A stretch of DNA of 64,000 nt, taken from Ectocarpus siliculosus. Taxonomy: Eukaryota; Sar; Phaeophyceae; Ectocarpales; Ectocarpaceae. A model generated the notes under the pieces. The model was not told where the DNA came from. It saw nothing but the letters and a program-made list of their open reading frames with translations, and did no database searches. Where the stretch lies: NCBI GenBank assembly GCA_000310025.1, contig FN649740.1, forward strand, positions 5,439,326 to 5,503,325. Reading direction: 5' to 3'. Position 1 is the first letter of the stretch, and each line of letters opens with the position of its first letter. Below are positions 14,029 through 62,400 of the stretch, piece after piece. The position numbers and the translations under genes are program-made.

Positions 14029-17000
14029 TCAATCGTCCCCCCAAGACCCCGCGAAGGGGGCCGAAGCCACGGATGACCACGCCGGTGACCCCCCCTCCTT
14101 GACAACACGGACCCCCCTTGTCGCAGGAGACGCCGAGGAGGCGTTTTCATCTTCGTTTTCATCGTGTTGGCTGCGCCATCGACGCCCGCCCCACGCGATG
14201 CTGCCCAAAGATCTCCCTGACGAGCCCCTGGTGGCAGCGCTGCCAAAGTCACCGCCGCCGCTCGTACCCGTGCTGTTGTTGCTGTTCGTTGGTCGCCGGG
14301 AGGGCCACGCGGCATCTGCCCCAAGTGCCATGTTGTGCAGGTTGGCGATCGAGCCATTGCTCCCGCCGCCGCCGCCGCTGCTGCTGCCGCTGCTGCTGCT
14401 CATACTGCTGCTGCTCATACTGCTACAGTCAGTGCTGCTGCCTGTGTGAGCTTGATCATCCTGTGTGGGTCGCCGGCTAGGCCACGCGACATCCGCCCCG
14501 AACGCGGCGGTGTGCATGCTCGCAATCGAGCCTTGGATGCCTCCACCGCTCTCCCCCCCCTTGTTTCTCGCGGCACCGGAAAGAACAGACGACACATCAC
14601 CACCAGAATCGCACGACAAGTCGTCATTGTCCCCAAGTTCCATCACAACGACATTGTCGCCAGCCGCCCTGATCTCCGCTACTATGGTCTCGTCAGGGAT
14701 TGCGCCGGAGCCCTGCATGTCCTCCACGAGCGCGGCCGCACGGCCCCACTCCCCCGCCCCTGCGCACGCCTTCAGGGCGACGTTGTACGCCGACGACCCG
14801 GGAGCAACGCCTCCCTTGCGCATGTTTCCGAGACAGATTAGCGCGCTCTTCCACCCCTGGTAACAGGCGACGGCGGTAAAATGGTTGTCACACAAGCAGG
14901 GGCAAAGTGTTGGGCAGGGTTGGAGAGGACTTTCGGGAGGCAATTGAGAGCGCACGGCATCCGCGCCTTTCGACGGCATCGAGGCGATGGCACATTGTTC
15001 CACGAAACGTAGGGATCTTGAAAGGTGAAGGGTTGGCGGTGAGAATCTCATTTTATGATCATTGTTTGCAGGTTCAGATGTGTTGAACGAACTCGCTACC
15101 CCAAACCTCAAGGGGAACAGAAATACTGTGTGCATGAACACCAGGACGTAGGCGGTGTATCATTGTGTTTCATTTTTTATTCCCTGGCGCGTTGGACGTT
15201 GTCGTCGACACACATCGGACGTTCGGCCCACAAAAACGACCATGACGTCATAGAAAACGAACGCCACCCGGTCATCAGAATTTGTAGCCACGCTGTAGCT
15301 GCACAACCGTATCTAGCTACAAAGGCTGGCAAGCGCCGAGAGCCGGCCCGTCGTGCACAAAAAATACGAGACTATTTGCAATCGTCGAAATAATGCGCGC
15401 GGAACGTGTCGCTGTGGCAACGCGAGAACCTAAAGTCAGACCGAGAGGTGGAGCCAACGTATGCGCATCTCTTGCTCCACAGCCATGAGGTGCACTACAA
15501 TATCATACATAGTCCCTTCTCCCGTTGGGATGCAGGCGGATCGGGTACGCGCTAATTGTTTTCTTTTTTGCGCCGCTGCCGCTGACTCTTCCGTCCGTAC
15601 GGCGTCATGTGGGAGGCCGGCGTTTAGAGCACTTGGCAAATCTCGGCTTGGTTGCCGACGTCAGATACAGATAAACTACTGCTGTAAGATAACGTGAAAC
15701 CACAGAATTGGTTCTACCGTTTTCTAAGACCTGGTCACGATTGTGATAGGACTACAACGCGGGCGAAAGATAGAAAACATCAGTGGACACCATGAGGTGA
15801 TACACCAGGCAGGCTCAAAGTCTTCCGTCCAGAGAAGACCGGAGTACTATATAGGGAGTGTTATCTACCGTAGACCAACTACATACAAGTACAGCAGTGA
15901 ATCGTACCCACCTTATCGGCGCACTTCTGCACCTCCGCGGCCCGCTTTAGCTCCATCGCCGCTGTCGGCCGCCTGGCATCAACGCCGTCCTTCTTCCTCC
16001 TGTCTACGGTCGATGCGAGCGAGAGGCCTCCCATACGCCGTCGCCCACCAACCTGCTGAACGTCCACCTAGGCCATGTCAAGGGATGTCAAGGGATGTCA
16101 AGGGAAGTCAAGGAATGTCAAGGAATGTCAAGGAATGCTAAGGCCGATGTCATGGAATGACAAGGCAGAGAGAATAGAAGAGGTCCTTGTTTAGGCCGGT
16201 TCGCCACATAGTGCCGGTAAGACGCCGGTCATATCTCTGGGCACGAGTGTCCACTCCAATACTAAATCCTAGATATCCCTGTTCTGAATAGTGCCCGGGT
16301 CCGGTATCGTGCCGGTGAATTATCTGGGCGCAATCCGGTATACTACAACACAGATACTGGTACCTCGACTGCTGGATGCGAACAGGGTACAGTAGTGCCA
16401 TACAAAGATTGATGAGCCGCATCTACAACCGTGTGCCATGCAGTACACTGCATAGGTTGCTTCGCCATCCGTCGCCGTCGCCTGCAGTACACTGCTGTGA
16501 GGCTGACGGGAGGAAAATACGCCAGGTCTTCCTTCGAGGGCAGAGGTACAGTAGTACGTCAAGCATCATCGCACGCACACGGCCCCTCGCTTGCCCATCA
16601 ACAGCGGTCTATGCACATGCATACGTAGGCATAAATTACCGTAAGTGACATGACGTAAGATACCACACACAGAGCAGTAGTTTGATGTACGTATATTCTT
16701 TTTTCTTTTCGTTGGGTATGCATAGAAAAACAAATGCTATAAAAAATGCATGCATGCATTAAATTGTTTTTGGGTTTGGGGATTAATTGTTTGTTTTTTT
16801 TTTCTCAATATGACACAACGAAACCATCTCTATCATAGAAAAGAGTCTGAGACAGATTAGCAATGGATTCATAGCGTCAGAAAGTACCTGTATGTCTACG
16901 ATTTCCCAGACAGCATATAGGGACATCTCCCCGCTGTTTTTGGGTTTGGTGAGTACATAAATTGTCCGCCCATTTTTAATATTTTTTTTCTTAATATGAC

Positions 17001-28373: not shown

Positions 28374-29355
28374 TTACGGAAGGCTGTACACGATTAGATG
28401 GGTCGGTAGGGCAGCGTCTTCGTTGTACACAACCAGCTCCTCGATGGCGCCCTGCCGACCGTTGTTGCAGGGTGCCATTAGCCATGTCAGTGTACACAAC
28501 CAGAGGGAAGCTCTACGTGTACCTTCATCTCAATATATTTTTGGATATGGCATTCCTTCGTTGGCCATGTGGGTTGTCGTCAGGCTGAAAACCATTATTT
28601 TCCCGCATTTTCTGTCGAATCGACGGAGTTCGTCGTACATTGACAACCTGAAACTGCAAAGTTACGTTCGCGACGTCAATTGCTTCACATACGGAGATAG
28701 CCCAAAATGGTGTGTGTAATTGCTTGTTCCCGCCGACAACATTTGTGTGCAACACAACACAACGCCCCCTTTTCACCCACTCCGAGCAACTCCGAGTCAC
28801 AAATGATGTCTACTTGAGGCGCAAAAATGGGATCTGTAGGTGCAGTAGTGCTCATTCCCTGTGCGTGCGGGAGTACTGCTGTCAAAGGTGGGAACATACA
28901 CTGGCTCATCCCATAACACAAGCTGAGCGGGTAACGGTGTCTTGTCTACGGTCTTGATAGAGCTTGCAAAGCCTCCCCAAGGTTAGGGTGAAATGGGTGG
29001 GGTTAAGGCTAGGGAAGCATGAGCCCGGTCCGCGAACAGTAGCCAATATTGAACGAATGGAGCGTTCGGACGAGGTAACCTTCAATCCAAAACTCCATCT
29101 ACCCGGGGAGGCGATCTGCTTCCTTGTACAGATAGTGTTGCCCTCGTCCTCTTTTTGCCTGTCTGGACTTGGTCTGAAACTTGGGGGCCGTCCTTGGCGA
29201 GTGACGGAACGATCTCTGCGCCGTTGGACGATGCTTTTCTGCACCTATTGGCGTCAGCTTGAGTGAAGTGTATGGCAGGGGCGGTGTCGGACCGACGGAG
29301 GCCAGATCGGCGTTAAAGTAAGAAGAACAGGACGACGACGACGACGTCGGCGACC

Positions 29356-29388
<33 letters not shown>

Positions 29389-32300
29389 CCGACAACTAAA
29401 GCAACAACAGCTAAAGCACCGACAACCAAAGAAACACTAAACCAAAAAAATAATGCGCATCAATTCTCCTCACCTCAGCCTGGACGGAATTATAGCCTGG
29501 TGGTGGGTACGTGCCACCGTCAAACCCTTTCTTCTTGGTGAGGAAGACTGACCCCTTCGCCACGTCGGCCACAAACATGCATCGCAACCTTTTCCCGTTT
29601 TCCTTTGTGATCAAAGCAAAGAAGGCCACAAGAGGGTATGATAGGAAATAAGTGGATGCAGGGCCGTAAAAATGCATATTGACGGTTCGAGCATCGTTGC
29701 CAGGGGGGGGTTGTTGACGTGTCTTTCGGGGCACTCCCAACGGTACACAAGATCCGCTTCACGTGTCGGCTGAGCTTGTTGCCAACGGTGTCGTCGAGAT
29801 GCCCCACAAACAAAAGGTCGAGGCCGTCCTTACTACTACGTAGTTCAATATAGGCACCTTTTTCTCGGTCGCCGGAGCGTAGGCATTGGCTCTACCAGGT
29901 TTTGAACTGAAGTAAACCCCTCGTCCGAACCGCGTCGAGCGTTTTCCGAGTTTGAAGCCTTGCAAGCAAATGTTGCAAACGTTGCAGAGCTGCAGCCCGC
30001 ACGGGGAAGCTTTCTGTTTGGACGGCGAAACGGCAGCGGAAGCGCTCAGCTCTCTCTCGTGATTGTTTACGAGGGCATGCATGCATACGGCTTCATGAGC
30101 GGGCGAATGCCCTCAAGTGACGTCTACATTTGCAGCAACTGGAGAGGTTGGATGAAGGGCACTCACTACTGCTGCCACGAGGCTGCAGTAGCGGGTCGGC
30201 ACCGTGTGGTTGGGTTCTTCATATGCTCGTATTCGTGCTGGGTGTGGAGCGATTCACACTGATCTGGTAGGGGGGGGGGCGGTGTTGGGAAGGACTTGGC
30301 GTGGAAGACTACCTTGGTCATGGTGTGTGGTGAAGTCGATTGGGGTAACCAATACGACAAGGAACAACATACGACGAACACAACATACATCATCCCGAAT
30401 ATATTGAGATTTCACTGTTTAACATTGCAAGAACTGGGACTCCGGCAAAGAGTCATTCGCCAGCCCAGCCCACCTTCGGGTCGAGGACCAGATTGCACGT
30501 GCTTCCGCAAGAGGTTCCATGGAAACGCCCGACAACAGTCCGATGACTCCGTGCGTACTTGTCGTGCTTCGCGCGAATATCTGCGGGAACCTTGAGGAGA
30601 AGTCAGGCCGCGAGAGTTCAAATTTGGTCAGCACCCCGGCGTTGGCCGAACGGACTGACAGGTACTTTCGGAGCATCGGTCTGCTGCTGCAGTCTACTGC
30701 ACTGCGAATCGCCCACCGAATACCGATACAAGTCTTGATTTCGACGTCAGTCGTCGTCACACGACGACCAAATACGTATTCAACCTCCGACCACGTGCCG
30801 TCGTTATGCCGTCTAGAAAACGACTAGGGATAGCAGGGCACACCAGCCAAGTGCTGCGTCATCCAAACAGCCCTCCTATTCGATGCGCTTTGACCTTTGG
30901 CGGGACAAACCCCGAGGGATATTTGTGCCGGGGTGCAAGATGCTAATGTTTCTTCGAGCACCCTTGAAGACGGGGTCAAACACATAGAGCTGGCACCTTG
31001 CTACCGTACGATTTTGCTCAAGCGGCACACTCTTTGTAGTGTAGCTGTTCAACGTATTTTATCATTTGGGTCCAGAGAGGTACACACCGTGATCCTCAAG
31101 ATTCGCTCTATTGCGAGCCCGTTTAGCCTCCAAGCGGACAAGAAGTCGTCGCGCAGCCTCGTACAATCGGGATTGCCGTCATACAGGGCACTAAGCGTGG
31201 CACCCTGGTTGTTCCCGACTGTGAGAATCCTGTCGAAGTGCGACCCCCCATTCCGCTGCAGAACCTGGCGTTTGAATCGTCCGTTACAGATAAGACACGG
31301 AGGAGGTTTTACCATCCTTTCGGACGTCTGAAGCTGGGGGGAAGGCAGCACGCTTCATGCTACAGCACTACGCTCGGTCAATACTTCTGCCCCATCAAGT
31401 ACTGGTAACTCTTTTTCCTTTTGTCCAAGAACACGAACGAGGTTTCGGGTATTTGATCCGAGTACGCAGGGCCGAAGGAGAGACCTTCGACAAGCGTCGT
31501 CAACGGCAAACCACAGCAAGGTCTGAGAGAGTCACGTTGGCCCACCAGTCCAAAGTCTGGGTCCCTCCGCGAGCGGGGGGGGTGGTTTGGGGGAGCACGG
31601 GCGGAGACACATATCCATGAATCCTGGGGGCATATGCTTGAGCGTTTTAGCTGAGGCTGCCGCTTCTCTTGTCGTGCACAGTATACCATCTGGGCCTGGA
31701 GACCAACGGCGGGTGGTGGATGTGCCGCGACACCCAAGCTTGTCTTCGGAAACTTCTCACAAAACACCCCCATGCACGTTCTGGGGTATCAGGCCTCAAG
31801 CCCGCCTGTGGCCAAGTGGTCAGAGAAATATGTCTTCAACTTGCTTGTCCTAACTTGCGCGCCCACCATTCCGGCAAGTCTGTTGGCAGGGAGTAGGAAG
31901 CGTGTGCGTTCTCTTGTGCAACAGAACTACACATGCCCAACCCGCTGGCTACGGCACCTACCTGTACACCTGCACGTTTCTTCTTTGCAGAAAGGGCCAA
32001 TGAAACGCACGTCGAACTAAATGTCCTGGAGCGCTAAAAATGAATTTTTCGAGGTATGCCTACGTACAAAAGAACAGAGTAGGGGTTGCGTGCTCATAGA
32101 TACACTCGTGTTGTCGTGCCACATGCGCCTGCCGACAAGCTCCTTATCGAGTAACGTTATACTGTGGTACGGTTTATTGTTGCCTTGAGCAACGAGACAT
32201 GAACGTCCGAAGGTCACAAGCCCTCACCGAATGGCATGTATCCTTTTGGTGGCTCCTTTTGGTGGCTCCTGACAACTCGAAATTTCTCCCCACGGGTGGC

Positions 32301-33465
32301 CTTCATGCCGTACCCGAATTGTTCGTTCGGGCGTATGTATACCCGTTGGCACAACAAGAAACGTACACAGTGGTGAAACTGACTACCGTATGAACCTCAC
32401 ACTTAGAGCATGCTGACGATTCCTGTTGACTTCCCCTCAGAGGGAATGACGAGGGGATCACGCATAGCGTCCTTACCTGAACCATGCGGTTGAAGGCCTG
32501 CACAGACCGGTACTTGTTCACTATCACCGACCGCAGGTACAGCTGGTCGTTGAGCTCGGAGCACTTCAGGTCCGCGATAGGCATGTATAGTATCTGCAGC
32601 ACTTGTTTCGTAATAATTCGCTGTGAAGAAATCAAGCCTTGGTTTGTGATAACGTCTTTTTTTTATTTATTCTTATTCAATTTCTAACGGCTCCGATGGG
32701 GCACTGTTCATTAGAACAAAGCGAATTCGTATGTAGCTAGTTCACCTGCAGCGGAGTCAAGAGACTTCGAATTTCGCCCACTTGTTGCCTCTGGGACTGC
32801 TCTAGCACGGCCACCCGCTTCCGCAGGTCCTTCTCCACCAGCCGTGCCAATCCACGCCGCATCTTCTCCTCCTTTGTGTCAGAATGCCCGTTGGTCCCTT
32901 GGCTCTTTTCGTTCTTCAACGTCTGCAACTCGTTTCGTAGCTGAGTCTCCACAGATTGCGCCTCGATACTTATCTGCCGAAGAAAATGCATGGTTTTTTG
33001 CTGCATTGCCGTCTTCGCTCTCTCAGCTTGTATGGCCACCTCCAAGGCAGCCTTTTCGCCCTCAACTGCCTTCAACCGGGCGGCGGCTATCTCCTCGCTT
33101 CTCCGGCGGTCATTGTGCAGCTGCAGCAGGGAGGCACACAGTTCCTGTATCTCCTCCTTATCGCTATTGCGCACCAACTCTTCTTGCTTGCTCAGCAGTC
33201 TCTCGTCGGCATTATCTTCACCGTGGCGTTGATCTTCGGCGATCAACTGGTTGGGTCCGTAGGAGTGTCCTGGTGCATCAACCTTTGTCTCCTCGCCCTC
33301 TTGATGGCCATTGGGTTCAAGTTGCCCGACCGGCGGGCGATTGCCATCAAGCGAGCGTACGGCAAGTGCATCTTTGGCCTGCTCTGGCTCTTCTGGCGAA
33401 GTGTTCGACTTCGAGCTTGTGGAGCTGCGCCAACGCCAGCGGGTTACTCTGTGCAGAGCTTTCAT
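28374..33465 (-). CDS. PARP-type ADP-ribosyltransferase with N-terminal coiled coil, copy A
   Basis: Seven phase-0 exons: 33465-32746, 32593-32477, 31264-31088, 30590-30474, 30013-29858, 29602-29474 and 28451-28374, giving 497 residues. Residues about 85-240 form a long charged coiled coil (RRSEEIAAARLKAVEGEKAA). The C-terminal half is a PARP catalytic fold: FHGTS (His362), GRGVYFS (Tyr411), ADVAKG, PPGYNSV and EELVVYNEDAALPTHLIVY (Glu477). These H-Y-E positions bind NAD+ and in PARP1 support poly-ADP-ribosylation. Four Cys (382, 387, 390, 393) lie between the first two, as in some fungal PARP-like proteins. The substrate is unknown; the coiled coil suggests oligomerisation. Exon 2 (LYMPIADLKCSELNDQLYL) has no counterpart in copies B and C. 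The 31264 acceptor could instead be 31255, and the last acceptor is the least certain. Confidence 0.83.
29350..29400 (-). repeat. CAA microsatellite in PARP-like copy A intron
   Basis: CAA triplets run between the sixth and seventh exons of copy A. A similar run lies at the corresponding place in copy B (36090-36123) and a broken one in copy C (about 42262-42292), so the microsatellite predates the duplications. Confidence 0.8.
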
Positions 33466-35053
33466 TTCGTCGCGACCACGGGCCGTTCCTATCGTACGCC
33501 TCAATCGAAGGTTGCATGCATATGCATCACGTGGTATGCATCGAGCGGCGGAACCTACTTGAACGGCCCCAGGAAATTTCTTTGGAGAAAAAGAATTTTC
33601 GCTGGCCTACTGGCAGGCCGTCGACAATTGGTCAATCAAGCTTCCACGTTGTACCAGGCACCATGTTGCCAAATATACGGTCCCCGATACCAGTAGGTGG
33701 TAACGGTACACGACCGACAGCAGTACAAACTCATACATGCACATGCATGCATGTACAGTAGCTTGAAGGAAATATGGCAACCTTTCATTTAAGTTAAGTG
33801 TGATCATCATGGTTCTCCAGATCCCTACTGCTGTACCACCACGTTACCGCCGTGTCCCATCCACAGCAACCACAGCAGTGATTGTGTGGACTCACTGCGA
33901 TGTGTTCCTGTGAAGGGAGAAATCATACACAAACGACCGAATAACGGTCCCAGGGAATTAATGTCGTTGAACCCACCACCGAAACCTTGCATCTTCTGTA
34001 GAACCGACGTGTACCTGTCTATTAGTCTAATCATAGTATAGATATATTCACATTTACCGTAGACCAGGCTTACTTACTATAGCAGCGGTGCATTATCCTG
34101 TGAGAACACTGCATAACGGAGGGAAGAAGTGCAGTAGTTTATGTCCCGTATCCAGGGTTTGATAGACATGCCGTCACCCTCCGGCGACCCGAACAATTTG
34201 TTTTTCTCTGCTCTCTTGAGAGTGAAGGGTGTGGTGTCTGATCGAGCCCGAAGTACTAGGGGACCCATCCCCAAGCCTCGACGTGAGTAGAATAAAATGC
34301 GGCAAACTACTATACTGTAACAGAAGCCGAAATCAAACCCATGTTAGTCGCGGGATGGCTTGTTTGATGCACCGGAGACCGTGGATACTCTTGCCTACAG
34401 ACAGCATGTGATTGACGGCATTACAAGACGGAGACCAGCAATGCCGGATGTGGGTAGTGTAATGGAGCAACTAGTGTATGAGCATTGTTCGAGCGTTTCA
34501 TGAACGTTGTATGAGCGCTTATTGGAGAATTTGAAGCGAAGTGCAAATTGGATAGCAGTCCTGGCGAAGGAGGTCAGGCTCCTCGGTGTGAACGTATCGA
34601 GACAATCGGCACGAAACCTGAAATACAGCCTAGGTTTCGAACCCATGTTAAACCTTCATCGGAACCGAAACGATACCATTAGACTGAAACAAGGTATCGT
34701 AATCCCCGGAAACGACGGAAACAACGTAACCGCTCGCCCCATCGAGTGCTAAGAAACGTCATCTATCAGTGAATCGATGGGCTGCCACAAGGTAAATCAC
34801 TACAAATCGCCTATACATTTCCTAGTACGCACACCAGGCTGCCAGACTCCACGCCCAGCAATTCACAAGAATTGTCTGCTCCCACGCGTGATTGGGACTT
34901 CTCCGGATTGAGAGTGAGCTCTCCCGTATCACCGGCAGATTGATTCCTGTGCCCCGAAGTCGCTCAATTCTGTGCCAATGCACGCCACGAGTCCGTGAAG
35001 GCTTGAATCCTGTCGTCCGGCGTGAAGTCTCGTGATGAGTAGTAGTGGCGGGT
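33466..35053. other. Intergenic between PARP-like copies A and B
   Basis: This holds the promoter of A and the 3' flank of B. A 5' flank block similar in all three copies (CGGAACCTAC, then CCCAGG or CCCAGC) lies near 33550. An 81-codon plus-strand frame at 34507-34752 has no recognisable motif. No core promoter element can be defended. Confidence 0.45.
35007..35040 (-). other. Conserved block after the stop codon of the PARP-like genes
   Basis: The plus-strand sequence CCTGTCGTCCGGCGTGAAGT, followed by CTCGTGATGAG, lies just beyond the stop of copy B. Close matches occur after copy A (about 28317-28348) and after copy C (about 41134-41163). It is probably 3' UTR retained through the duplications. 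Confidence 0.6.
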
Positions 35054-36094
35054 CTACGGAATGGTGTAGACCACTAGATGGGTCGGTAGGGCGGCCTCCT
35101 CCTTGTACACAACCAGCTCCTCGAAGGCCAGCCCTTTTCCAACCTGCCCACGATTGTTGTTGTGTTGTTGCACGGTGCGAAGAACGGTGGTGTGAGTGCA
35201 GTGCACAACACACAGCCAGAGGGAACCTACAATACCTCTTGGATGGGATTCATTCATTCGACCTTTCGTCACGCTGAAAGCAATATTCGCCCACATTTTT
35301 TTCTGTCGAACGGACGGCGTTCGTTTTGCCCTGGGAACGCTGACACTTGACTGAACGCTGTGTGTGAGCGACGTCAGTTGCTTCAGCTACGATGAAGATA
35401 ACCCGAACACGTGTCGCGTTTTGTTGCTTCCTTACCGCCAACATTGCGCGCGCACAGCACCATGTACCCTTTCGCCCACTCCTTACAGTAGTCGCGAACG
35501 ACTGCTATCCCAGGAGACACGCTAAAGTACGTTGGAGTCTTCACTCGGAATGGTCGGGGCGCGTGGGAGTGCCGTCAAAGATGGGAACATACAATTCCAC
35601 GTAACGTATTAATATATTAGTCTATTTCTGTCTCGTCGGCGACGCCTTTGGTAGGGCTTGTAAAGCATCCCCTAAGGGATAGAGCCAGGGTAAGGCCTGC
35701 AGGGCAAGGTGTAGGAGAACCCGGTCGGCGAGCAGTGCACCAATATTCATTACCGCTTCCCGGCTTCGATGAAGCGTTAGGACGAGAACAGCTACATGTG
35801 GTTGTTATCTTTGGAACCGCTGTGGTTTGTAAATGAACTGCAACACTCATCCGGTGCGGATTGAAGCGATCTGCATGTACATTTGTGCGTGTTTGGTTTT
35901 GATCATTTCTGCTTCTTGTCTAGCATCTAGGTTTGTGTTGAAACTTGGGGAGTTCTTCTTGGTGAAAAATGGGACCAGCCCTCCCTGTTTCCCACGTTGA
36001 CTTATCTGCTCAAGTTTGTGGTTAGCTTGAAGTGCACGAAAAAGGACGTGTCGGAATGAGTCAGCGTTTAACGAGAAGAAGACAGTGCCGACAA

Positions 36095-36125
<31 letters not shown>

Positions 36126-39100
36126 TACTACTGTACAGCAACAACAAACTGTAAGAGTGAAATGACGTCTCCTCACCTCTCCCTGGACGGAGTCGTGGCC
36201 TACGGGCGGGTACCTGCTAGCGTCAAACCCTTTTTTCTTGGTGATGTAGGCTCTCCCCTTCGCCACCTCTGCCACGAAGATGCTTCGCAACTTTTTCCCG
36301 TTCTCCTTTGGGACCAAAGCCAAGAAAACCGCAAGAGGGGTGTGATAGGAAAGTGAACACGGGGTCGAAAAAACGCATCTTAGCGGTTCGAGCATCGCGT
36401 CCAGGGGGGGTTATCGAGTTCTCTTTTGGGGCACTCCCACCGGTACTCAAGAACCGTTTCATGTGGTGGCTCCACGTATTGCTGGGGGCGTCTACGAGAT
36501 CTACGAGATGCCCCCACGAACGAAATAGGTACCTGGAAACATGCGTACCTTCTTCTCAGTACCCAAAGCGTATGAACTGGCTTTGGTAGCGGCCTTGCTG
36601 AAGTACACTCCCGGCCCGAACCGCGTCGAGGTTTTCCCGAGCTTGAAGCCTTGCAAGCAAATGTTGCAAAGGTTGCAGCCCTGCTGCCCGCATGGGGCAG
36701 CGTTCTGATAGGACGGCGAATAGGCAGCGCGGAAGAGTTCAGCTCTCGTTTTTGTTTACCACGGCATGTATGCATAGGGTTGCATGGGCGGACAAATACC
36801 CCCCCGCGGCGTCCACCTGCAATACGTGCCGTGCCGGAGAGGTTGGATGATAAACACTGCATATGGTTATCTCCACACGCTCGGACACGTATTGGGTGGG
36901 AGCGAGTCACACTGATCTGGTGGTGAGGAACAGCATTCGCAACGTCTTTCGAAACAGCAAAAAAGGAGTCTGCGCGGCTGCGGCCATCAGCAGCATGTTG
37001 GACATGATGCGTAGCGCAGTCATTTCAAGCAACCAATACGAAAAGGAACTGCATACGACTTCGACAAACACCATCGGGAAAATCCTAAACGGCGATTCGC
37101 CAGCCCCGCCCACCTTCGGGTCGAGGATGAAGTTGCATGCGCTTCTGCAAGAGGTTCCATGGAAGCGTTGGACGACATTCCCCAACCGCCGTGCGTAGTT
37201 TAGATGCTTCTGACGAACACCTGCGGGAACCTTGAGGAGGAGGCAGGTAGCGAGAATTCAAATTTGGTCAGCACCCCGGCGTTGTTGGTCGAACGGACAG
37301 ACAGGTACTTTCGGAGCATCGGCCTGCTGCGGCCCTCTAGTTTGCATTGCCCACCGAAGGCCATTTCACTGTGTCTTGACGCCGCGTCTCTACACTGTAG
37401 TCGTCACACGAACAACAAGGAGGCACATCCACCTCCGACAACGTGCCGTCCTGGCGCCACCTAAATAGAAAACAACTACGAATTGGAGGACTCACTACTC
37501 TGAAACAAGGTTCTCCTCCAACAAAGATGAAGCTTTGTTGAAAAATATTCTTGTACAACCTTTCTGATGAGAAAATCCGAGGGGTGTGTACGTCTAGCTT
37601 CCCGTTTCTGCGATCAGTACTGAATACGGGGACAAGAACACCGACAGACTTGACACCGTGCTACAGCACACAACATGCTCAAGCGTAGCACAGCCAAGCT
37701 GGTCAATATCAATAACCTTTACCACATGATTTCGTCTGGAGAGGGCCGCACCGTGATCCTGAACATTCGCACTATTGCTACCCCGCCTGGCGCCTCCCAA
37801 CCGGGGTAGAAGTCGGCCCGCAGCCGGGAGCAGTCTGGATGGGCGTTACCTAGGGAGGTAAACGTGGCACTTGCACCCTGGCTGCTCAAGACGGTGATGA
37901 GACCCCCAATGAGCGGCACCCTGTTCACCTCTAGACCCTGGCAATACGAGCGATCGACACATCAGCGACCACGAAGGTTATCCCACCTTACAGGCGTCTA
38001 ATAAAGTTGGGGGGAAGGCAGCGCTATTGATGGCACTATCTACTTCTCGGTCAGCGCTTATTCTACCCCCTAAATTGGCTCTTCATCTTCTTCCTCTGTA
38101 CAAAACGAACGAGGATATGGGTGTGCGTTCGTTCCGAGTGCATAGGCAGGGTCGGTCGAGCGAGAGACCTTCGACAGCGCCGTCTAACTTGTACTTTGTA
38201 CAGCAGTACTACTGTACCTTCGGGGTACGCCATCCTTTTTGCTTGTTTTTCTACCGATCAAGCGGGTGGGGCTCCTCCCATCCTCCGAAGAGCGGATCGG
38301 TTGCAAGCCTACTAAATAATACAGTACTCCATTATTCACCATCCCCCAACCCCCTTGGGTGTTGCTGCACATGCATTTCAGGTCCAATAGTAAGTTCACC
38401 TGCAGCTGAATCGAGAGACTTCGAATTTCGTCGACTTGTTCCCTGCGCAACTGCGCTAGCGTTGCCACTTGCTTCTGCAAGTCGTTTTCCACCAGTCGTG
38501 CCAACCCGCTCCTGATCTTCTGCTCCTTTGTATGGGACAGCCCTTGGCTCTTCTTTTCTTTTTGCAACGTCTCCATCTGATTTCGCAGCTCGATCTCCAC
38601 GGATTGCGCCTGGATATTCGTCTGACGAAGGAAATGCATGGTTTTCTCCTGCATCGCCGTCTTCGCTCGCTCTTCTCTTAAGGCCACCTCTAAGGCCGCC
38701 TTTTCGTCCTCAACCGCCTTCAACCGGGCCGCGGCCATCTCCTCGCTTCTCCGGAGGTTGTCGTGGAGCTTCAGCAAGGACGCATGCAGTTCCTGTATCA
38801 TCTCCTCTTCGTTGCCCGTGCGCACCAACTCTTCTTGCTTTCTCAGCAGTCTCTCGTCGACAGGGTCTTCACCCGGGGACTCCTTAGGTCCGTAGGATTG
38901 TCGGGATGGATCAGCATTTGTCTCCTCCTCCTCCTCTCCATTGCCGTTGGGTTGAACCTGCCCGACCCGCGGCAAGATGCCCTCAAGCTCACCTGCGAGC
39001 AAGATCATGTGTGCTGCCGCCGCTTGTGCTGGTGGCGTCGTCTCTTCTTCGGCCTGCGCCGATCCTTCTGGCGGCGGAGTCTTCGACTTCGACCATTTTG

Positions 39101-39143
39101 AGCTGTGCCAACGCCAGTGGGTTATTTTGTGCCAAGCCTTCAT
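35054..39143 (-). CDS. PARP-type ADP-ribosyltransferase with N-terminal coiled coil, copy B
   Basis: Six phase-0 exons: 39143-38400, 37937-37752, 37230-37114, 36704-36549, 36305-36177 and 35143-35054, giving 473 residues. The start aligns with the other copies (MKAWHKITHWRWHSS). The N-terminal half is a charged coiled coil (RRSEEMAAARLKAVEDEKAA). The catalytic half has QRFHGTS (His334), GPGVYFS (Tyr383), AEVAKG, YPPVGHDSV and EELVVYKEEAALPTHLVVY (Glu453), so the H-Y-E residues are intact. The four-Cys segment reads CGQQGCNLCNIC. Splice sites mirror copies A and C. It diverges most just before the catalytic core: exon 2 starts GLEVNRVPLIGG where A and C have VLQRNG. The Tyr region (KAATKASSY) also differs. 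It lacks the extra exon of copy A. Function in vivo is inferred only from the fold. Confidence 0.83.
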
Positions 39144-41193
39144 TCTGTCGCGACCAGAGCCTTTCTCGCTACAGCAGTAGTACCTACTCTAAGGACAGCG
39201 TGCATTCGAGACACGAGCGGCGGAATTCGGAACCTACCGAATGCCAGGACCGTTCCCAGGAAACTTCTTTAGGAGTAGGAGATGAGAATTTTCTCTGACG
39301 ATCTTACAGCAGTGTACCGTTTATTATGTTGTATCAAAGACTTTTACACATTTTCTATGTATGCATACCTTGTGCGCAAAGGAGTGGCTGCTAATACGAG
39401 CGATGAAACCTACCGAATGCCACGGCCACCCCAGAGGATGTCGTACTGCTGTGGAAACAATGCGCGTCTGTACTTGACGTACATACTTTTTTTGTATGTT
39501 GCTGTCTACAATCGACCCGTTTGACAAGGTGACGGTTAACGTTGTAACCTGGTATATTGTAGGTCACGAATTTTCCCATCACTTACGCATGTGTGTCTCA
39601 AGGCAATTAATGGCTCAGGTGAAACCTTCTGTCCATCATCGTATGTATGTCTGCACATCACCTTCTGACAGAAGGGTGTGGTGACGGTCTTGTCAAAACA
39701 CCTTGCTTGTTCGTGCGAAACTCGCACGGAGACTCGGGTTGTTGGGAATGCATCCTTTCTGAGTCAGTCCGAGAGAGGTTTTCCCTTTTTTTACCAGAAC
39801 GTTTGTCCATGGTGTTGAGAAGCACGATAACCACTAGACCACTGGTCAGCCGCTGACTAGTGGTCTAGTGGAGTGGTTATCGTGCTCCGCAACAGATGGC
39901 AGTCTTTCGCTTTGTGATGCGTTTCGACTCCACCATCCCCGGCGTCCTCGCATTGTGCGATTCGTGCGCTTTCTGTAAGGGACTACATTAGAGCGTCCGA
40001 TGACTTCTTTTCCGATGGACTCCAAGCGATTGTCATCACATTTGTCGTTGTTTCCGCCCGGTGAAAAGAACCATTTCATTGGAAAGAAAGCCAGTCTCAA
40101 CTTCCTCTCGACAACAATCGTATGCAGACATCGAGTTAATCCCAGACCTATAATGCGGGTAGCGGCCAAACAAGAGCAACCCAATGAACTATATTTTCCA
40201 ACCCTAGATGAGACGATCAGAGTATCCCAACGAATTGCCCGACTCAATAGGAGACGACCAGCTGTAGCAAGGCGTACCACGACTGTTATTTACCCTCCTT
40301 CCTCGCGTCCGAGTCGCGTACAGTATGGTGCGTATGATTCGCAACACAACAGCCACTAACTCTCATGGATTGGCACGTGTTTTGCGGGAAACAGCAACAA
40401 CCATGTTCTAGGCAAACACGGCTCGTTCATCACCGTCCATAGCTTTCTTACATGCATCGACGGTACCCCAAGGGGAAACACGTTGACGCACAACCGACTG
40501 CACAGCCGACACCTCACCGGTGGGTTCTCTACAAAAGAGGCGTTCCCGGTTTTTCCCCGGCGTTTGTACCTGGAAAGTCTTGCGTATGGTGATGGCGTTA
40601 ACACTTGTCTCGACTCCACAATCTCCAGCGTACTCAACGCGCGTTGGGGAATTTTCTCCCTCCCTACGGGGCTCAAGAGTCCCACGAAGTCATGTCACCC
40701 AAACTAAGCTGCCGTCAACACATCTATCTTAGGGTTTCGTTCGGCTAAGACTCTGCCGACCTCCATCATTCAACCAATCTTGGAAAACAAGCCAGCCAGA
40801 AATGACCTCGAAACACCAGCGTGCTACAACAACGAATGCTAAACCCATCAGGAAGTGGTTGTGGCCGCAGCAAGTCAGACACAAAATCCCTGACAGCTCG
40901 TATGCGCCCCGAACTTCACGAACTCGTTTTCCACATTCGGGTGAAACTTCTCCCGGTGAACTACAGCTTCTCTTGTCTTGTATCCTCACTCGCTCATGTG
41001 CTAGGTAAAATCTAAAGGTGGCTTCACAACAATTCTGGAAAATGGCAGTCCGTCCAGGCACCCATCAGTCTCGGTGCGTGTTTCCAGCGGCACTACGCAA
41101 CCGACGAGTTATCCCGCGCATGGTGGCTTGAATCCTGTCGCCCGGCGTGACGTCTCATGATGAACACTGTATTGTAGAGTGTAGTGGCGGGGT
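39144..41193. other. Intergenic between PARP-like copies B and C
   Basis: The 5' flank of B near 39210-39265 resembles those of A and C, and a shorter echo (GAAACCTACCGAATGCCACG) recurs at about 39405. The tRNA-like inverted repeat lies at 39831-39935. The rest shows no recognisable gene. Confidence 0.45.
39831..39935 (+). repeat. tRNA-like inverted repeat, possible SINE head
   Basis: AGCACGATAACCACTAGACC at 39831 is repeated inverted as GGTCTAGTGG, GTGGTTATCGTGCT at 39859-39887, with a 5-b insertion in the right arm. The right arm resembles a tRNA 5' half with an A box (TGGTCTAGTGG). About 40 b further on, GTTTCGACTCC near 39921 resembles a B box (GGTTCGANTCC). No full cloverleaf forms, so a tRNA-derived SINE fragment is more likely than a tRNA gene. 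Confidence 0.4.
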
Positions 41194-44100
41194 CTACGGA
41201 AGGCTGTAGACGACTAGATGGGTCGGTAGCGCGGCCTCCTCCTTGTACACAACCAGCTCCTCGAAGGCCAACCCTTTTCCAACCTGCCCACGATTGTTGT
41301 TGTGTTGGTGTTTTGTTGCAGGGCGCGAAGAACGGCGTGAGTGCAGTGCGCAATGCACAGCCATAGAGGGAACCTACCTCTAGGCGTACCGTCATCGTAT
41401 TATATCTTGGATGTCGCATTGCATGCCTTCATTCGACCATTCGGCGGCGGCTACGCATTTTTTTTCGCCCCACACGTTTTTCGTCCAAGCGGCGGCGTTC
41501 ACCTTACTCTGGAACCCGAGCGCTGACGGTTTTCTGTGACGAACAATGGTTGTACCTACCACATGCTGTAAAGCGTGCGAAGATTCTCCCACGGCCAACC
41601 TCGCGAGGAACAGCATACTGCAACCCTCCTACTACAAGCGTCAAGATGCTATACGAGACGCGCTACCATAGAAGAAGAGTGGGGTAGTTGGCCTCGTTGG
41701 TATTGAAACTCCTGAGGGCGAGATTACTCGCAAACTTGGGGTGTATTCATTACTGTCAAAGATGCGAACGGACTATCCCATGCGATAAAAATATGTGGAT
41801 ATTTCTGCCTTGTTACGATTTATATGGCCTCCCCGTGCAGCATCTTCGGGTCTCGACGGGGAAGGATGATACTGGTCGTCGGCGAACGCAACATAGCATC
41901 GGTGAACAGCAACATAGCATCGAGCGCCCCCCGCCTTCGATCGGGCTCTGACAAGGGTTGTCCAACTTTGTCATGGTACATGTTCAATACGTGGCCTACC
42001 CAGTGAGGCTATCCTCTCCCTTCACGGATTGTGCTGCCATTTGATTTTTGTTTTTCTTCGTATATCTGGATTTTGGTCTGACAACCGGGAGCATTTCTTT
42101 GGCGAGTGATGGAGCCAACACTGCGTCTTAGCACTTTTTCGTCATCTGCAACTATTTGGGGGTAACCGGTGACCACGCGGCATGGTTCCTTTTCCTTACT
42201 GGTTGCGAGACAGGACGTGTCCAAGCCGAGGTTCGATCAGCTTTTTCGTCAGGAGGCAACAACGAACAACGGCAACCAACAGCAAGCATTGGCACTATGG
42301 CCTGCACACCGGTTCTCCTCACCTCAGCCTGGACGGAGTCATGGCCTACTGGCGGGTAGGTGCCACCGTCAAACCCGGTGTCCTTGGTGATGAACGACCT
42401 CCCTTTGGCCACGTCGGCCACAATGATACATCGCAACTTTTTCCCTCTTCCCTCTGCCTGAAAAGAGCACAGGCGGCGATGCGACGGAAAACGACACGAA
42501 AGTATGCATTAATGACGAGCAGGACAAGAACTTCGCGGTTCGAGCATCCGATCCGGGGAGGGGGTGTTCGAGATGGTTATTTGGACACTCCCGGCAGTAC
42601 GCAAGATTATCTTCCATGTGTTGGCAAAGCTTGTTGCCGAGGAGTTCTAGGAAATCCCCCAAAAAACCAACGACTGAGGCCGACCTTTCTTCTTGAATAC
42701 ATCGGACATTTTCGCACCTTTTTCTCTGTCCCCTGAGCGTAGCCATTGGCCTTGGCGGGCTTGGTACTGAAGTACACACCCTGTCCGAACCGCCGGGAGG
42801 CCTTGCCGAGCTTGAAGCCTCGCAAACAAATGTTGCATAACTTGCAAGCCTGCAGTCCGCACGGGGAAGCTTTCTGGATGCGACGGCGAGGCAACAGTGG
42901 GAGAGAGGTCAGTTCTCGTGAGTTTCGACCAGGGCGTGCACGGCCGTACAAGCGGAAAAACACCGCCCACACACACGACGCCAGAAAACTTGTTGTAAAA
43001 GTTGTTTGAGGAGCACTGCTATCACAAGGCTGCAGCAGGGGACGGGCACCATGTGGTTTATTTCCACATGCTCATGCCACTCCTTCTGTACGAGACGTTC
43101 TCGACAAGACTCCGCAAACGTGATAAGTAACAAGGTACCGGCGCCGACACCGCCAACAAGACCACCCCCCCCACCCCCCACCTTCGGGTCGATGATAAAG
43201 TTACACGTGCTTCTGCAAGAGGTTCCATGGAAGCGCTGGACGACATTCCCGTGACTCCGTACGTAGCCGGCGTGCGTTTCGCCAACGCCTGCGGGGACCT
43301 GGGAGAGGGGCCAGGCCGCGAGCGTTCAAGCTTGGTCAGCGCACCCCAGCGTTGGTCGAATGAGCACACAGGGGTTTTGGGCATCGGTCTGTAACTAAAC
43401 GCGCGGCACTATGCTTGTAACCGGCCCGCGAAGGCCATCACTGAGTGTATTATTGACACCGCATCACTTGCCGTCACACGCAGAACAAGGAGGTATCCAA
43501 CCTCGAATCGCGTGCCGTTCGGGCGGCACCTAGCAAGCAACAACGGTGAGGAGGACACGCCGGCCTAGTGCTGTGTCCGGACAGCCCTACTTTTCGATGC
43601 ACTTTTGACCCTTGTGGGGACGAAATCCGAGGCATGCGTGCGTCTGGCTGCAACCTGCTATTCAAAGTTCTGCGGGCAGCCTTGAAGACGGGGTTAAGGG
43701 CGCAGGGCCAACACCATGCTATACAAACTGCTCAAACGGCACACACACGAGCTTTCAAAGATATTCATCGCGTGCTTTCCTCTATTGGTACTAATAGAGA
43801 GGGGCGCACCGTGATCCTGAAGATTCGCTCTATTGCGAGCCCAGTCAGGGTTCTCCAGCCGGATAAGAAGTCGGCGCGTAGCCGTGGACAATCTGGATGG
43901 CTGTCACCTAGAGCACTAAGCGTGGCATTTGCACCCTGGGTGCTCCCTACCGTTAAGACACTGTCAATGTGCGGTTCCCCGTTCCGCTGCAGAACCTGGC
44001 ATTTCAAACGATCGACACCGAAGAAACCACAAAGGTAAGCTTAGACCACCTTGAAGGGTGTCGAATAGTTGGGGGAGAGGGGCGAGACAGCGCTAGTTTT

Positions 44101-45614
44101 GCGTGTGTCGGTCGAACTCTTCGAATCACGCATCGGGCCTGTACTCCGTAGGCGTTTTTTTTTCGCCATGTAGGTTCACTAACATTCATTCCACACTATT
44201 TTCAGTACAATAGTCATCAACGAAATCGACAACGAAAATACGAGGCGATCACCTACGGAGTATACGCCTGGCCACAACGGAACTATTGGCGCTCCTTCAC
44301 CTTCCTCGAACACGAAACAATTTGTCTTTCTTGTGACTCTTGTGGCTGTTCGTGCCATGCCGAGTAGACAGCAGTGGTACGTACCGAACGAGAGACAGAC
44401 ACTGATGCCTTAACAAAAACAATCCGAAAACAAATTTGAGAGAGTCATGCGCACAGGTCTCGAGACCGGCCTGTTGATCATGCAGAGGAAATCACGTAAG
44501 AGCAGTACTTCAGTAATGGGGGTGGCCACAAAGCCATTGTCACAGGCAGTAAATGAACCCCATTTCGCAGATTCTTCCTACGCACAGCAGTCGATTTCTA
44601 CCGAGTTCCTGCCTGTTGATTTGCCTGCTGACTGAGAGGAGAATAACGGTCGAGACGGGATTCTTGAGTGAGGACCACCTCCAAAGAGTCTACTTGCTAT
44701 CTAGTCCCACAACTTGGTATTTTCGTTGCTGACGTTTGCTGATGCAGACATGCTCAGGTTGTTGAGTCCACTACTGGTGCGGAACAGATTGCATGGCCAA
44801 GCCCGCGATTTCGAAGATGGGCACCGAATTCGTATGCATATGTACAAAATACGCGCAGCAGTAAAAGTTTCACCTGCAGCTGAGCCAAGAGAACTCGAAT
44901 TTCGTTCGCTTGCTGCCCGGTTGACTGCTCGAGCGTGGCCACCTGCTTCCGCAAATCCTTTTCCACCAGCCGTGCCAACCCGCTCCTGACCTTCTCCTCT
45001 TTCGTTTGAAATCGCCCTTCGCCGTGGCCACTTGCTATCTTCAACGTCTCCACCTGGTCTCGCAGCTCGGTCTCCAACGACTGCGCCTCGATATTTGTCT
45101 CCCGAAGGAAATGCATGGTTTTCTGCTGTCTCGCGGTCTTCGCCCTCTCCGCCAGTAAGGCCACCTCCAAGGCAGCCTTTTCGTCCTCAACTACCTTCAA
45201 CCGGGCAGCCGCCATCTCCTCGCTCCTCCGGAGGTCATCGCGCAACTGCAGCAAGGAGGCACGCAGCTCCTGTATCTCCTCTTTGTCGCCAGCGCGCACC
45301 AACTCTTGCTTTCTCAGCAGTCTCTCGTCGGCATTGTCCCCACCCCGGCGCTGCTCTTCGGCAACGAACCCCATGGCTCCGTAGGAGTGTCGGGATGGAT
45401 CAACCTTTGTCTCCTCCTCCTCCTCTTGGTTGACATCGGGTTGATTCTCGCCGATCCGCGAAGTGTTGCCGTCAAGCTCGCTTACGAGCCAAACGATACT
45501 CTTGCTGTTGTGGTTTCCAACTGACTGTACCGGTGCCCTCGGTAGCGGAGACTCCAACTCCGAGCATTTGGAGCCGCGTCTTCGCCAGCGGGTCGCCTTG
45601 TGCCAAAGCTTCAT
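41194..45614 (-). CDS. PARP-type ADP-ribosyltransferase with N-terminal coiled coil, copy C
   Basis: Six phase-0 exons: 45614-44874, 43995-43810, 43298-43182, 42873-42718, 42457-42323 and 41283-41194, giving 474 residues. The N-terminus (MKLWHKATRWRRRGSK) is followed by an acidic linker and a charged coiled coil (EEMAAARLKVVEDEKAALEV). The catalytic half carries QRFHGTS (His333), GQGVYFS (Tyr382), ADVAKG, YPPVGHDSV and EELVVYKEEAALPTHLVVY (Glu454), so the NAD-binding H-Y-E set is complete. The Cys cluster reads CGLQACKLCNIC. Splice sites match copy B in number and phase; the fifth exon is two codons longer because its acceptor (TTTTCAG) is shifted. The 3' end is very close to copy B over the last exon, suggesting recent duplication or gene conversion there. 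Likely mono- or poly-ADP-ribosylation of unknown targets. Confidence 0.85.
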
Positions 45615-62111: not shown

Positions 62112-62400
62112 TGAGGAGTTGCAAGATCGTCTTCTACAGCGGAAGATCGTCCTCAACAGTCGGTGATCGTCGGTCAAGATGCAAGATAGTCGTCATAGTC
62201 GTGGGTCTGTGGAGACTGTTGGTGGAAGAACATCTTCAACAGTGGAAGATCACCTGAGGAGTTCCAAGATCGTCTTCTACAGCGGAAGATCGTCCTCAAC
62301 AGTCGGTGATCGTCGGTCAAGATGCAAGATCATCGTCATAGTCGTCGGTCTGTGGAGACTGTTTGTGGAAGAACGTCTTCAACAGTGGAAGATCACCTTC
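62112..62400 (+). repeat. 143-b tandem duplication
   Basis: TGAGGAGTTGCAAGATCGTC at 62112 recurs with one change at 62255, and the two units match along their length, through GTCGGTGATCGTCGGTCAAG and TCTGTGGAGACTGTT. Each unit contains shorter AAGATCGTC-type repeats. A partial third start follows. Confidence 0.85.

What the first reader, a model, noticed from the sequence alone, without database searches (positions are those of the whole stretch)
28374..45614. Tandem triplication of a coiled-coil plus PARP-type ADP-ribosyltransferase gene
Seen: three minus-strand genes in a row share exon phases, a charged coiled-coil first exon and a catalytic half with FHGTS, GVYFS and ELVVY motifs. Known: these motifs define the PARP catalytic fold. 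Inference: a lineage-specific expansion of an undescribed coiled-coil-PARP architecture, perhaps a self-assembling ADP-ribosylation enzyme used in stress, DNA damage or defence. No domain other than the coiled coil and the PARP fold was recognised.
Basis: partly seen in the sequence, partly recalled or inferred. Interest (0 to 1): 0.8.

Follow-up and report, generated by a model that had tools for sequence, protein, structure and literature searches.

The report
Tandem trio of coiled-coil PARP genes
Three neighbouring, intact genes in a brown alga encode predicted ADP-ribose-transferring enzymes joined to a coiled-coil stalk, and their enzyme part carries a strictly conserved four-cysteine loop, probably metal-binding, beside the active site, at a place where the related enzyme tankyrase has none.

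Summary
It sits between catalytic H and Y; the tankyrase zinc site lies elsewhere. Zinc binding is inferred.
The coiled-coil form is one 100/100-supported clade; of 21 stalk hits 20 are named Ectocarpus, one is unnamed. The A/B duplication predates the split from E. fasciculatus. Most likely: an oligomerising, metal-braced ADP-ribosyltransferase. Self-assembly, chemistry and any stress or defence role are untested. New variant of a known kind.

The parts
28374..33465 (-). gene A, 458 aa: exons 33465-32746, 31264-31088, 30590-30474, 30013-29858, 29602-29474, 28451-28374
   Evidence: open, GT-AG, phase 0; PF00644 40.8 bits
35054..39143 (-). gene B, 473 aa: exons 39143-38400, 37937-37752, 37230-37114, 36704-36549, 36305-36177, 35143-35054
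   Evidence: residues 115-473 identical to public P0010; PF00644 38.2 bits
41194..45614 (-). gene C, 474 aa: exons 45614-44874, 43995-43810, 43298-43182, 42873-42718, 42457-42323, 41283-41194
   Evidence: 100% identical to public P0001 over 474 aa; PF00644 29.2 bits
44874..45614 (-). gene C exon 1: disordered N-terminus (residues 1-93, pLDDT under 50) and helical coiled-coil stalk (helices 111-194 and 203-252, the latter running into exon 2)
   Evidence: AlphaFold2; heptad bias p 0.019 for the first helix, 0.24 for the second
38400..39143 (-). gene B exon 1: stalk, homologous to that of gene C
32746..33465 (-). gene A exon 1: stalk, homologous to that of gene C
43182..43298 (-). gene C exon 3: catalytic His (FHGTS, H333) and first Cys of the C4 motif (C341)
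42718..42873 (-). gene C exon 4: C353, C358, C361 of the C4 motif and catalytic Tyr (GVYFS, Y382)
41194..41283 (-). gene C exon 6: catalytic Glu (E454 in FEELVVY)
   Evidence: aligned with YAEYVIY of tankyrase-1
35050..35170 (-). 3' end of gene B, 95% identical to gene C 41190-41310 but 62% to gene A: probable gene-conversion patch

Best explanation
The three genes are intact, constrained paralogues encoding PARP-type ADP-ribosyltransferases. Shown by sequence or prediction: an unstructured N-terminus, a roughly 140-residue two-helix stalk and a C-terminal ART domain with H-Y-E; no WGR, regulatory helical, ankyrin, SAM or WWE domain was found. Between the catalytic His strand and the helix that ends in GF, ahead of the GxY strand, lies an insert of roughly 20-35 residues that brings four conserved cysteines. 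Inferred mechanism: the cysteines bind a structural zinc that fixes this insert beside the nicotinamide pocket, shaping NAD+ or acceptor binding; the stalk pairs subunits (self or A/B/C mixed), concentrating catalytic domains; the enzyme transfers ADP-ribose from NAD+ to proteins, mono or poly undecided. The catalytic module is widespread and has been fitted with different N-terminal parts (Cys/His repeats, RanBP2-type finger, TPR repeats, coiled coil); the coiled-coil version arose in or near Ectocarpus and was duplicated in tandem.
Against: No metal, oligomer, enzyme activity or transcript was measured. The heptad signal is not significant in the second helix. Conserved cysteines could be redox-active instead. 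pTM of the whole model is 0.56, so stalk-to-ART geometry is unknown. The family was collected with profiles that contain the motif, so relatives without it would score lower and could have been missed. A few relatives are annotated without the catalytic Glu or Tyr.
Confidence: 0.72

Rival explanations
1. Pseudoenzymes: the ART fold is kept as an NAD- or ADP-ribose-binding scaffold, with the coil as the working part, as in catalytically dead PARP homologues such as RCD1.
For: Some relatives are annotated without the catalytic Glu or with an altered Tyr (P0015 Q, P0042 A, P0055 H). RCD1 is described as enzymatically inactive (PMC2964712, passage seen).
Against: Genes A, B and C keep H, Y and E. 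Among 89 aligned sequences Y is kept in 87 and E in 79 of the 80 with a letter. Exons 2-6 are under purifying selection (dN/dS 0.34-0.57, upper limits 0.49-0.79).
Confidence: 0.15
2. The four cysteines are a redox switch (disulfides) that turns the transferase on or off, not a zinc site.
For: The motif lies next to the active-site His in the sequence; an intertidal alga meets strong redox swings (general knowledge).
Against: Fixed CX4C and CX2C spacing, kept from brown algae to basidiomycetes, looks like metal ligands; the tankyrase zinc in the same fold shows that metal braces occur (PMC4188013, passages).
Confidence: 0.15
3. The tandem family is a stress or pathogen-response effector in which coils and TPRs are recognition arms. 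This is a statement on role and can hold together with the best explanation.
For: Same module joined to TPR repeats (P0020-P0025); TPR exons of Ectocarpus NB-TPR candidate immune receptors are said to shuffle (PMC11378527, passages seen); tandem copies with a stalk seen almost only in Ectocarpus.
Against: No expression data found. The Ectocarpus-Eurychasma cDNA paper (PMC3174193) holds none of the terms PARP, ADP-ribos, poly ADP or NAD. No dN/dS above 1 over whole halves (single sites not tested). PMC11378527 has no occurrence of PARP or ADP-ribosyl.
Confidence: 0.25
4. Degenerate or misjoined ORFs, not real genes.
For: One alternative seven-exon model broke gene C.
Against: Six-exon models are open in all three copies; C is identical to a public protein; dN/dS limits are below 1.
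Confidence: 0.02

Closest known systems
Tankyrase-1/2 (PARP5A/B) ART domain
   Different: No ankyrin or SAM domain found; tankyrase's zinc ligands lie after the GxYF strand, about 20 A from the active site (PMC4188013; order also seen); here four Cys lie before it; the stalk is a coiled coil
PARP3 and PARP4 catalytic domains
   Different: No other Pfam family above cut-off in A, B or C, so no WGR, regulatory, VIT or vWA domain
Uncharacterised 'PARP catalytic domain-containing' or unnamed proteins of brown algae, Chrysophaeum, Polarella, Emiliania and basidiomycetes
   Same: Same catalytic module with the C4 motif
   Different: N-termini seen are Cys/His repeats, RanBP2-type finger or TPR instead of the coiled coil
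PARP6/8 cysteine-rich region
   Same: A putative zinc motif in a PARP
   Different: [quoted passage not shown] here CX8-13CX4CX2C inside the ART domain

Membership tests
PARP/ARTD (PF00644) | score above Pfam's curated cut-off | tested here: met
   40.8, 38.2 and 29.2 bits, cut-off 26.7
PARP/ARTD (PF00644) | ART fold | tested here: met
   [not shown]
PARP/ARTD (PF00644) | H-Y-E catalytic triad | tested here: met
   H333, Y382, E454 of gene C; FHGTS, GVYFS and EELVVY in A and B
PARP/ARTD (PF00644) | ADP-ribosyl transfer from NAD+ | not testable with these tools
   needs an enzyme assay
Tankyrase | ankyrin repeats and SAM domain | tested here: not met
   no such Pfam match listed at E up to 1 in A, B or C (HMMER's filters drop most matches above 0.1)
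Tankyrase | three Cys and one His zinc site after GxYF | tested here: not met
   no cluster of three Cys and a His at that place in A, B, C or in the 22-row alignment by eye; site described in PMC4188013
DNA-dependent PARP1/2/3 | WGR and PARP regulatory domains | tested here: not met
   no match listed at E up to 1
RCD1/SRO (plant clade 2) | WWE domain; catalytic residues not conserved | tested here: not met
   no WWE match listed; H-Y-E kept; features from PMC2964712 passage, where clade 2B lacks WWE
Published PARP clades 1-6 | position in a tree with human and plant PARPs | not tested
   no reference PARP sequences were brought into a tree
C4-ART subfamily (defined here) | HGT-x3/5-C-x8-13-C-x4-C-x2-C | tested here: met
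   genes A, B, C; 99 of 103 proteins found by the two catalytic-domain searches
C4-ART subfamily (defined here) | zinc bound by the four Cys | not testable with these tools
   needs metal analysis or a crystal structure
Coiled-coil proteins | long helices with heptad pattern | tested here: inconclusive
   helices 111-194 and 203-252 in the model; heptad bias p 0.012-0.033 in the first, 0.24-0.72 in the second

The most novel reading that the evidence does not exclude
A so far unnamed branch of PARP-type enzymes, shared by brown algae, a pelagophyte, a dinoflagellate, a haptophyte and basidiomycetes, carries its own metal-binding C4 module next to the NAD site. It works as an exchangeable catalytic head on many adaptors. 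In Ectocarpus it was put on a coiled-coil stalk and triplicated, giving potential hetero-oligomeric ADP-ribosylation complexes with no animal counterpart.
Probability: 0.5. Interest if true: 0.62.

Novelty: new variant of a known kind. Interest (0 to 1): 0.48.

Why it matters
[quoted passage not shown] PMC2964712); the other noted homologues in Ectocarpus and found no obvious PARG there (PMC4245714). A conserved four-cysteine module beside the NAD pocket would be a new regulatory or specificity element in a heavily studied, drug-targeted enzyme fold. The same head on coils, TPRs and Cys/His repeats gives a natural series for testing how an N-terminal adaptor steers an ADP-ribosyltransferase. 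The gene trio spans 17 kb, with clear orthogroups in other Ectocarpus species, so it can be studied by gene removal.

Tried and rejected
Seven-exon model with a 44-49 nt exon 3: rejected because it puts gene C out of frame; an acceptor 10 nt further upstream of the following exon, with that small exon left out, gives phase 0 in all three.

Extra exon in intron 1 of gene A (32593-32477, open, AG/GT flanked; my reading): not adopted. BLAST of intron 1 gives no A/C match, and the A/B match lies elsewhere (about 31501-31304). It was not searched for in the genome.

Genome-wide paralogue count: the PF00644 family search of the own genome gave four exon-level matches, one of them gene A; I did not study the other three. 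The protein search did not complete. From public records alone, nine proteins labelled E. siliculosus are listed (P0001, P0010, P0025, P0026, P0044, P0045, P0050, P0053, P0056). Records are clustered at 90% and names of cluster members are not shown, so this is a lower bound, and I cannot say whether gene A has a record of its own.

Prior description of a C4 ART subfamily: none seen in the listings of ten paper searches (two searches asked mainly about Ectocarpus immunity genes and Ectocarpus PARPs). Several listings were cut (20 of 213, 12 of 15, 12 of 300, 8 of 45), and the library holds open-licence papers only.

A role in infection: PMC3174193 searched for PARP, ADP-ribos, poly ADP and NAD, no occurrence. 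PMC7955679, on another ART-like family, searched for stramenopile, zinc, cysteine, coiled, fungi and brown: its protein is LRRC9. No tRNA and no Rfam match in the window. Folds absent from the Foldseek and VIA lists are not evidence of anything; only residues 268-474 were well covered there.
Full report
What is there. On the minus strand the window carries three head-to-tail genes: C 45614-41194 (474 aa), B 39143-35054 (473 aa) and A 33465-28374 (458 aa). Each has six exons; all 15 introns are GT-AG and every junction is phase 0. The genome is a 189 Mb assembly; gene C is identical to a protein labelled Ectocarpus siliculosus.

Are the genes real. Gene C matches P0001 at 100% over 474 aa; gene B residues 115-473 match P0010 at 100%, the public model lacking the first 114 residues; gene A's nearest relative among the fetched proteins is P0015 of another Ectocarpus, 92.6% over 433 aa. 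Pairwise dN/dS over 449 shared codons is 0.53 (A/B, bootstrap 0.42-0.68), 0.43 (A/C, 0.33-0.57) and 0.42 (B/C, 0.31-0.51); stalk codons give 0.48-0.52 (upper limits to 0.76) and catalytic codons 0.34-0.57 (upper limits to 0.79). 51% of 231 stalk positions and 55% of 218 catalytic positions are identical in all three. The six-frame PF00644 search of the own genome listed only gene A's exon 4 of the three, as expected when short exons are scored apart.

In an alignment of 89 family sequences (89 of the 103 proteins returned, gene C's and gene B's own records among them) C341, C353 and C358 are present in 89 and C361 in 88, the remaining row (P0061) having a gap; spacing is HGT-x(3 or 5)-C-x(8-13)-C-x4-C-x2-C in the 88 complete rows. 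Over all 103 the motif is found in 99; P0027, P0061, P0100 and P0103 lack it and look incomplete there, and of the four further stalk-search hits P0104-P0107 none has it; three of these show no HGT and P0107 ends near it. In the 89 rows the catalytic His is in 89, the Tyr in 87 and the Glu in 79 of the 80 with a letter; nine rows have a gap at the Glu. 87 of 89 rows have 42-57 residues between HGT and the following RxG, the outliers 23 and 63; tankyrase-1 has 22 on the alignment (my count). So the cysteines sit on an insert between the catalytic His strand and the helix ending in GF. Tankyrase has a zinc site as well, but after the GxYF strand, called unique to tankyrases, function unknown (PMC4188013, passages read). 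The PARP6/8 motif of PMC4245714 is different and precedes the PARP domain (passage). That the four cysteines bind zinc is my inference. The search profiles contain the motif, which favours finding members that have it.

Where it occurs. Profile search found 86 proteins, only the 7998 candidates sharing most words being scored. Names given there include Pylaiella, Scytosiphon, Hapterophycus, Laminaria, Choristocarpus, Chrysophaeum, Polarella, Emiliania, Lactarius, Daedalea and Phanerochaete; that these are brown algae, a pelagophyte, a dinoflagellate, a haptophyte and basidiomycetes is recalled. N-termini differ: Cys/His repeats that match no Pfam family (P0017, P0018), TPR (P0025, TPR_12 144.5 bits), a RanBP2-type finger (precomputed in P0083; sub-threshold in P0028). 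The stalk as query gave 21 proteins, 20 named Ectocarpus and one unnamed, again with a capped candidate list of 7999. In a tree of 89 rows (87 of the 89 aligned sequences, P0014 and P0016 being too short, plus genes A and B) the coiled-coil form is one clade of 16 rows, 100/100, on a long branch, with the Cys/His protein P0017 as sister at 96/88. Inside it A, B and C each group with relatives from other Ectocarpus species; E. fasciculatus has an A-type (P0009) and a B-type (P0012) member, so the A/B duplication predates that split; A and C join at only 95/63. A fourth group with longer coils (P0003-P0006) has no locus of its own in the window.

Against the literature. [quoted passage not shown] Lactarius, which I recall as Russulales, has the C4 type. 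PMC4245714 reports PARP homologues in E. siliculosus and no obvious PARG there (passages and the first part of section 3.1). No paper describing this subfamily was seen in the listings of ten searches of an open-licence library, which is weak evidence of absence.

How it most likely works. Shown or predicted: intact constrained genes, ART fold, triad, C4 motif, helical stalk. Inferred: zinc, NAD+-dependent transfer, coil-driven oligomers, perhaps mixed among paralogues. Open: mono versus poly, targets, and biological role. The lack of a detected PARG (PMC4245714) mildly favours mono-ADP-ribosylation.

Limits. No transcript, protein or metal data. The own-genome protein search never ran (eleven unanswered calls), so the paralogue number is a lower bound from public records. 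No tree against human and plant PARPs was built.

Noticed in passing
35050-35170 against 41190-41310: The last exon and its upstream intron end of genes B and C are 95% identical over 121 nt while gene A is 62%; exons 1-5 of B and C are 72-79% identical. Looks like recent gene conversion at the 3' end.
   Followed up: partly
29257-29099 (minus): In intron 5 of gene A an open stretch (LTPIGAEKHRPTAQ...) matches the C-terminus of the public protein P0015; used as a last exon it would remove the catalytic Glu strand. Possible alternative ending or annotation error.
   Followed up: no
29356-29436 and 36091-36125: Triplet (ACA/TTG) repeats lie early in intron 5 of both gene A and gene B.
   Followed up: no
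32593-32477 (minus): Open, AG/GT-flanked, phase-0 stretch (ILYMPIADLKCSELNDQLYLRSVIVNKYRSVQAFNRMVQ) inside intron 1 of gene A without a BLAST counterpart in intron 1 of B or C.
   Followed up: partly
14032-15159 (minus): 376-aa ORF with a sub-threshold PPR_2 match (21.8 bits, cut-off 30); the other eight flanking ORFs tested there had no Pfam match.
   Followed up: no
62112-62398: Two 143-nt tandem copies, 95% matching.
   Followed up: no
P0003-P0006 (other Ectocarpus strains): A fourth group of coiled-coil PARPs with longer coils; no separate locus for it in this window.
   Followed up: partly
P0029, P0085: Two relatives carry two full copies of the C4 motif and two PF00644 stretches: double-headed PARPs.
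   Followed up: no
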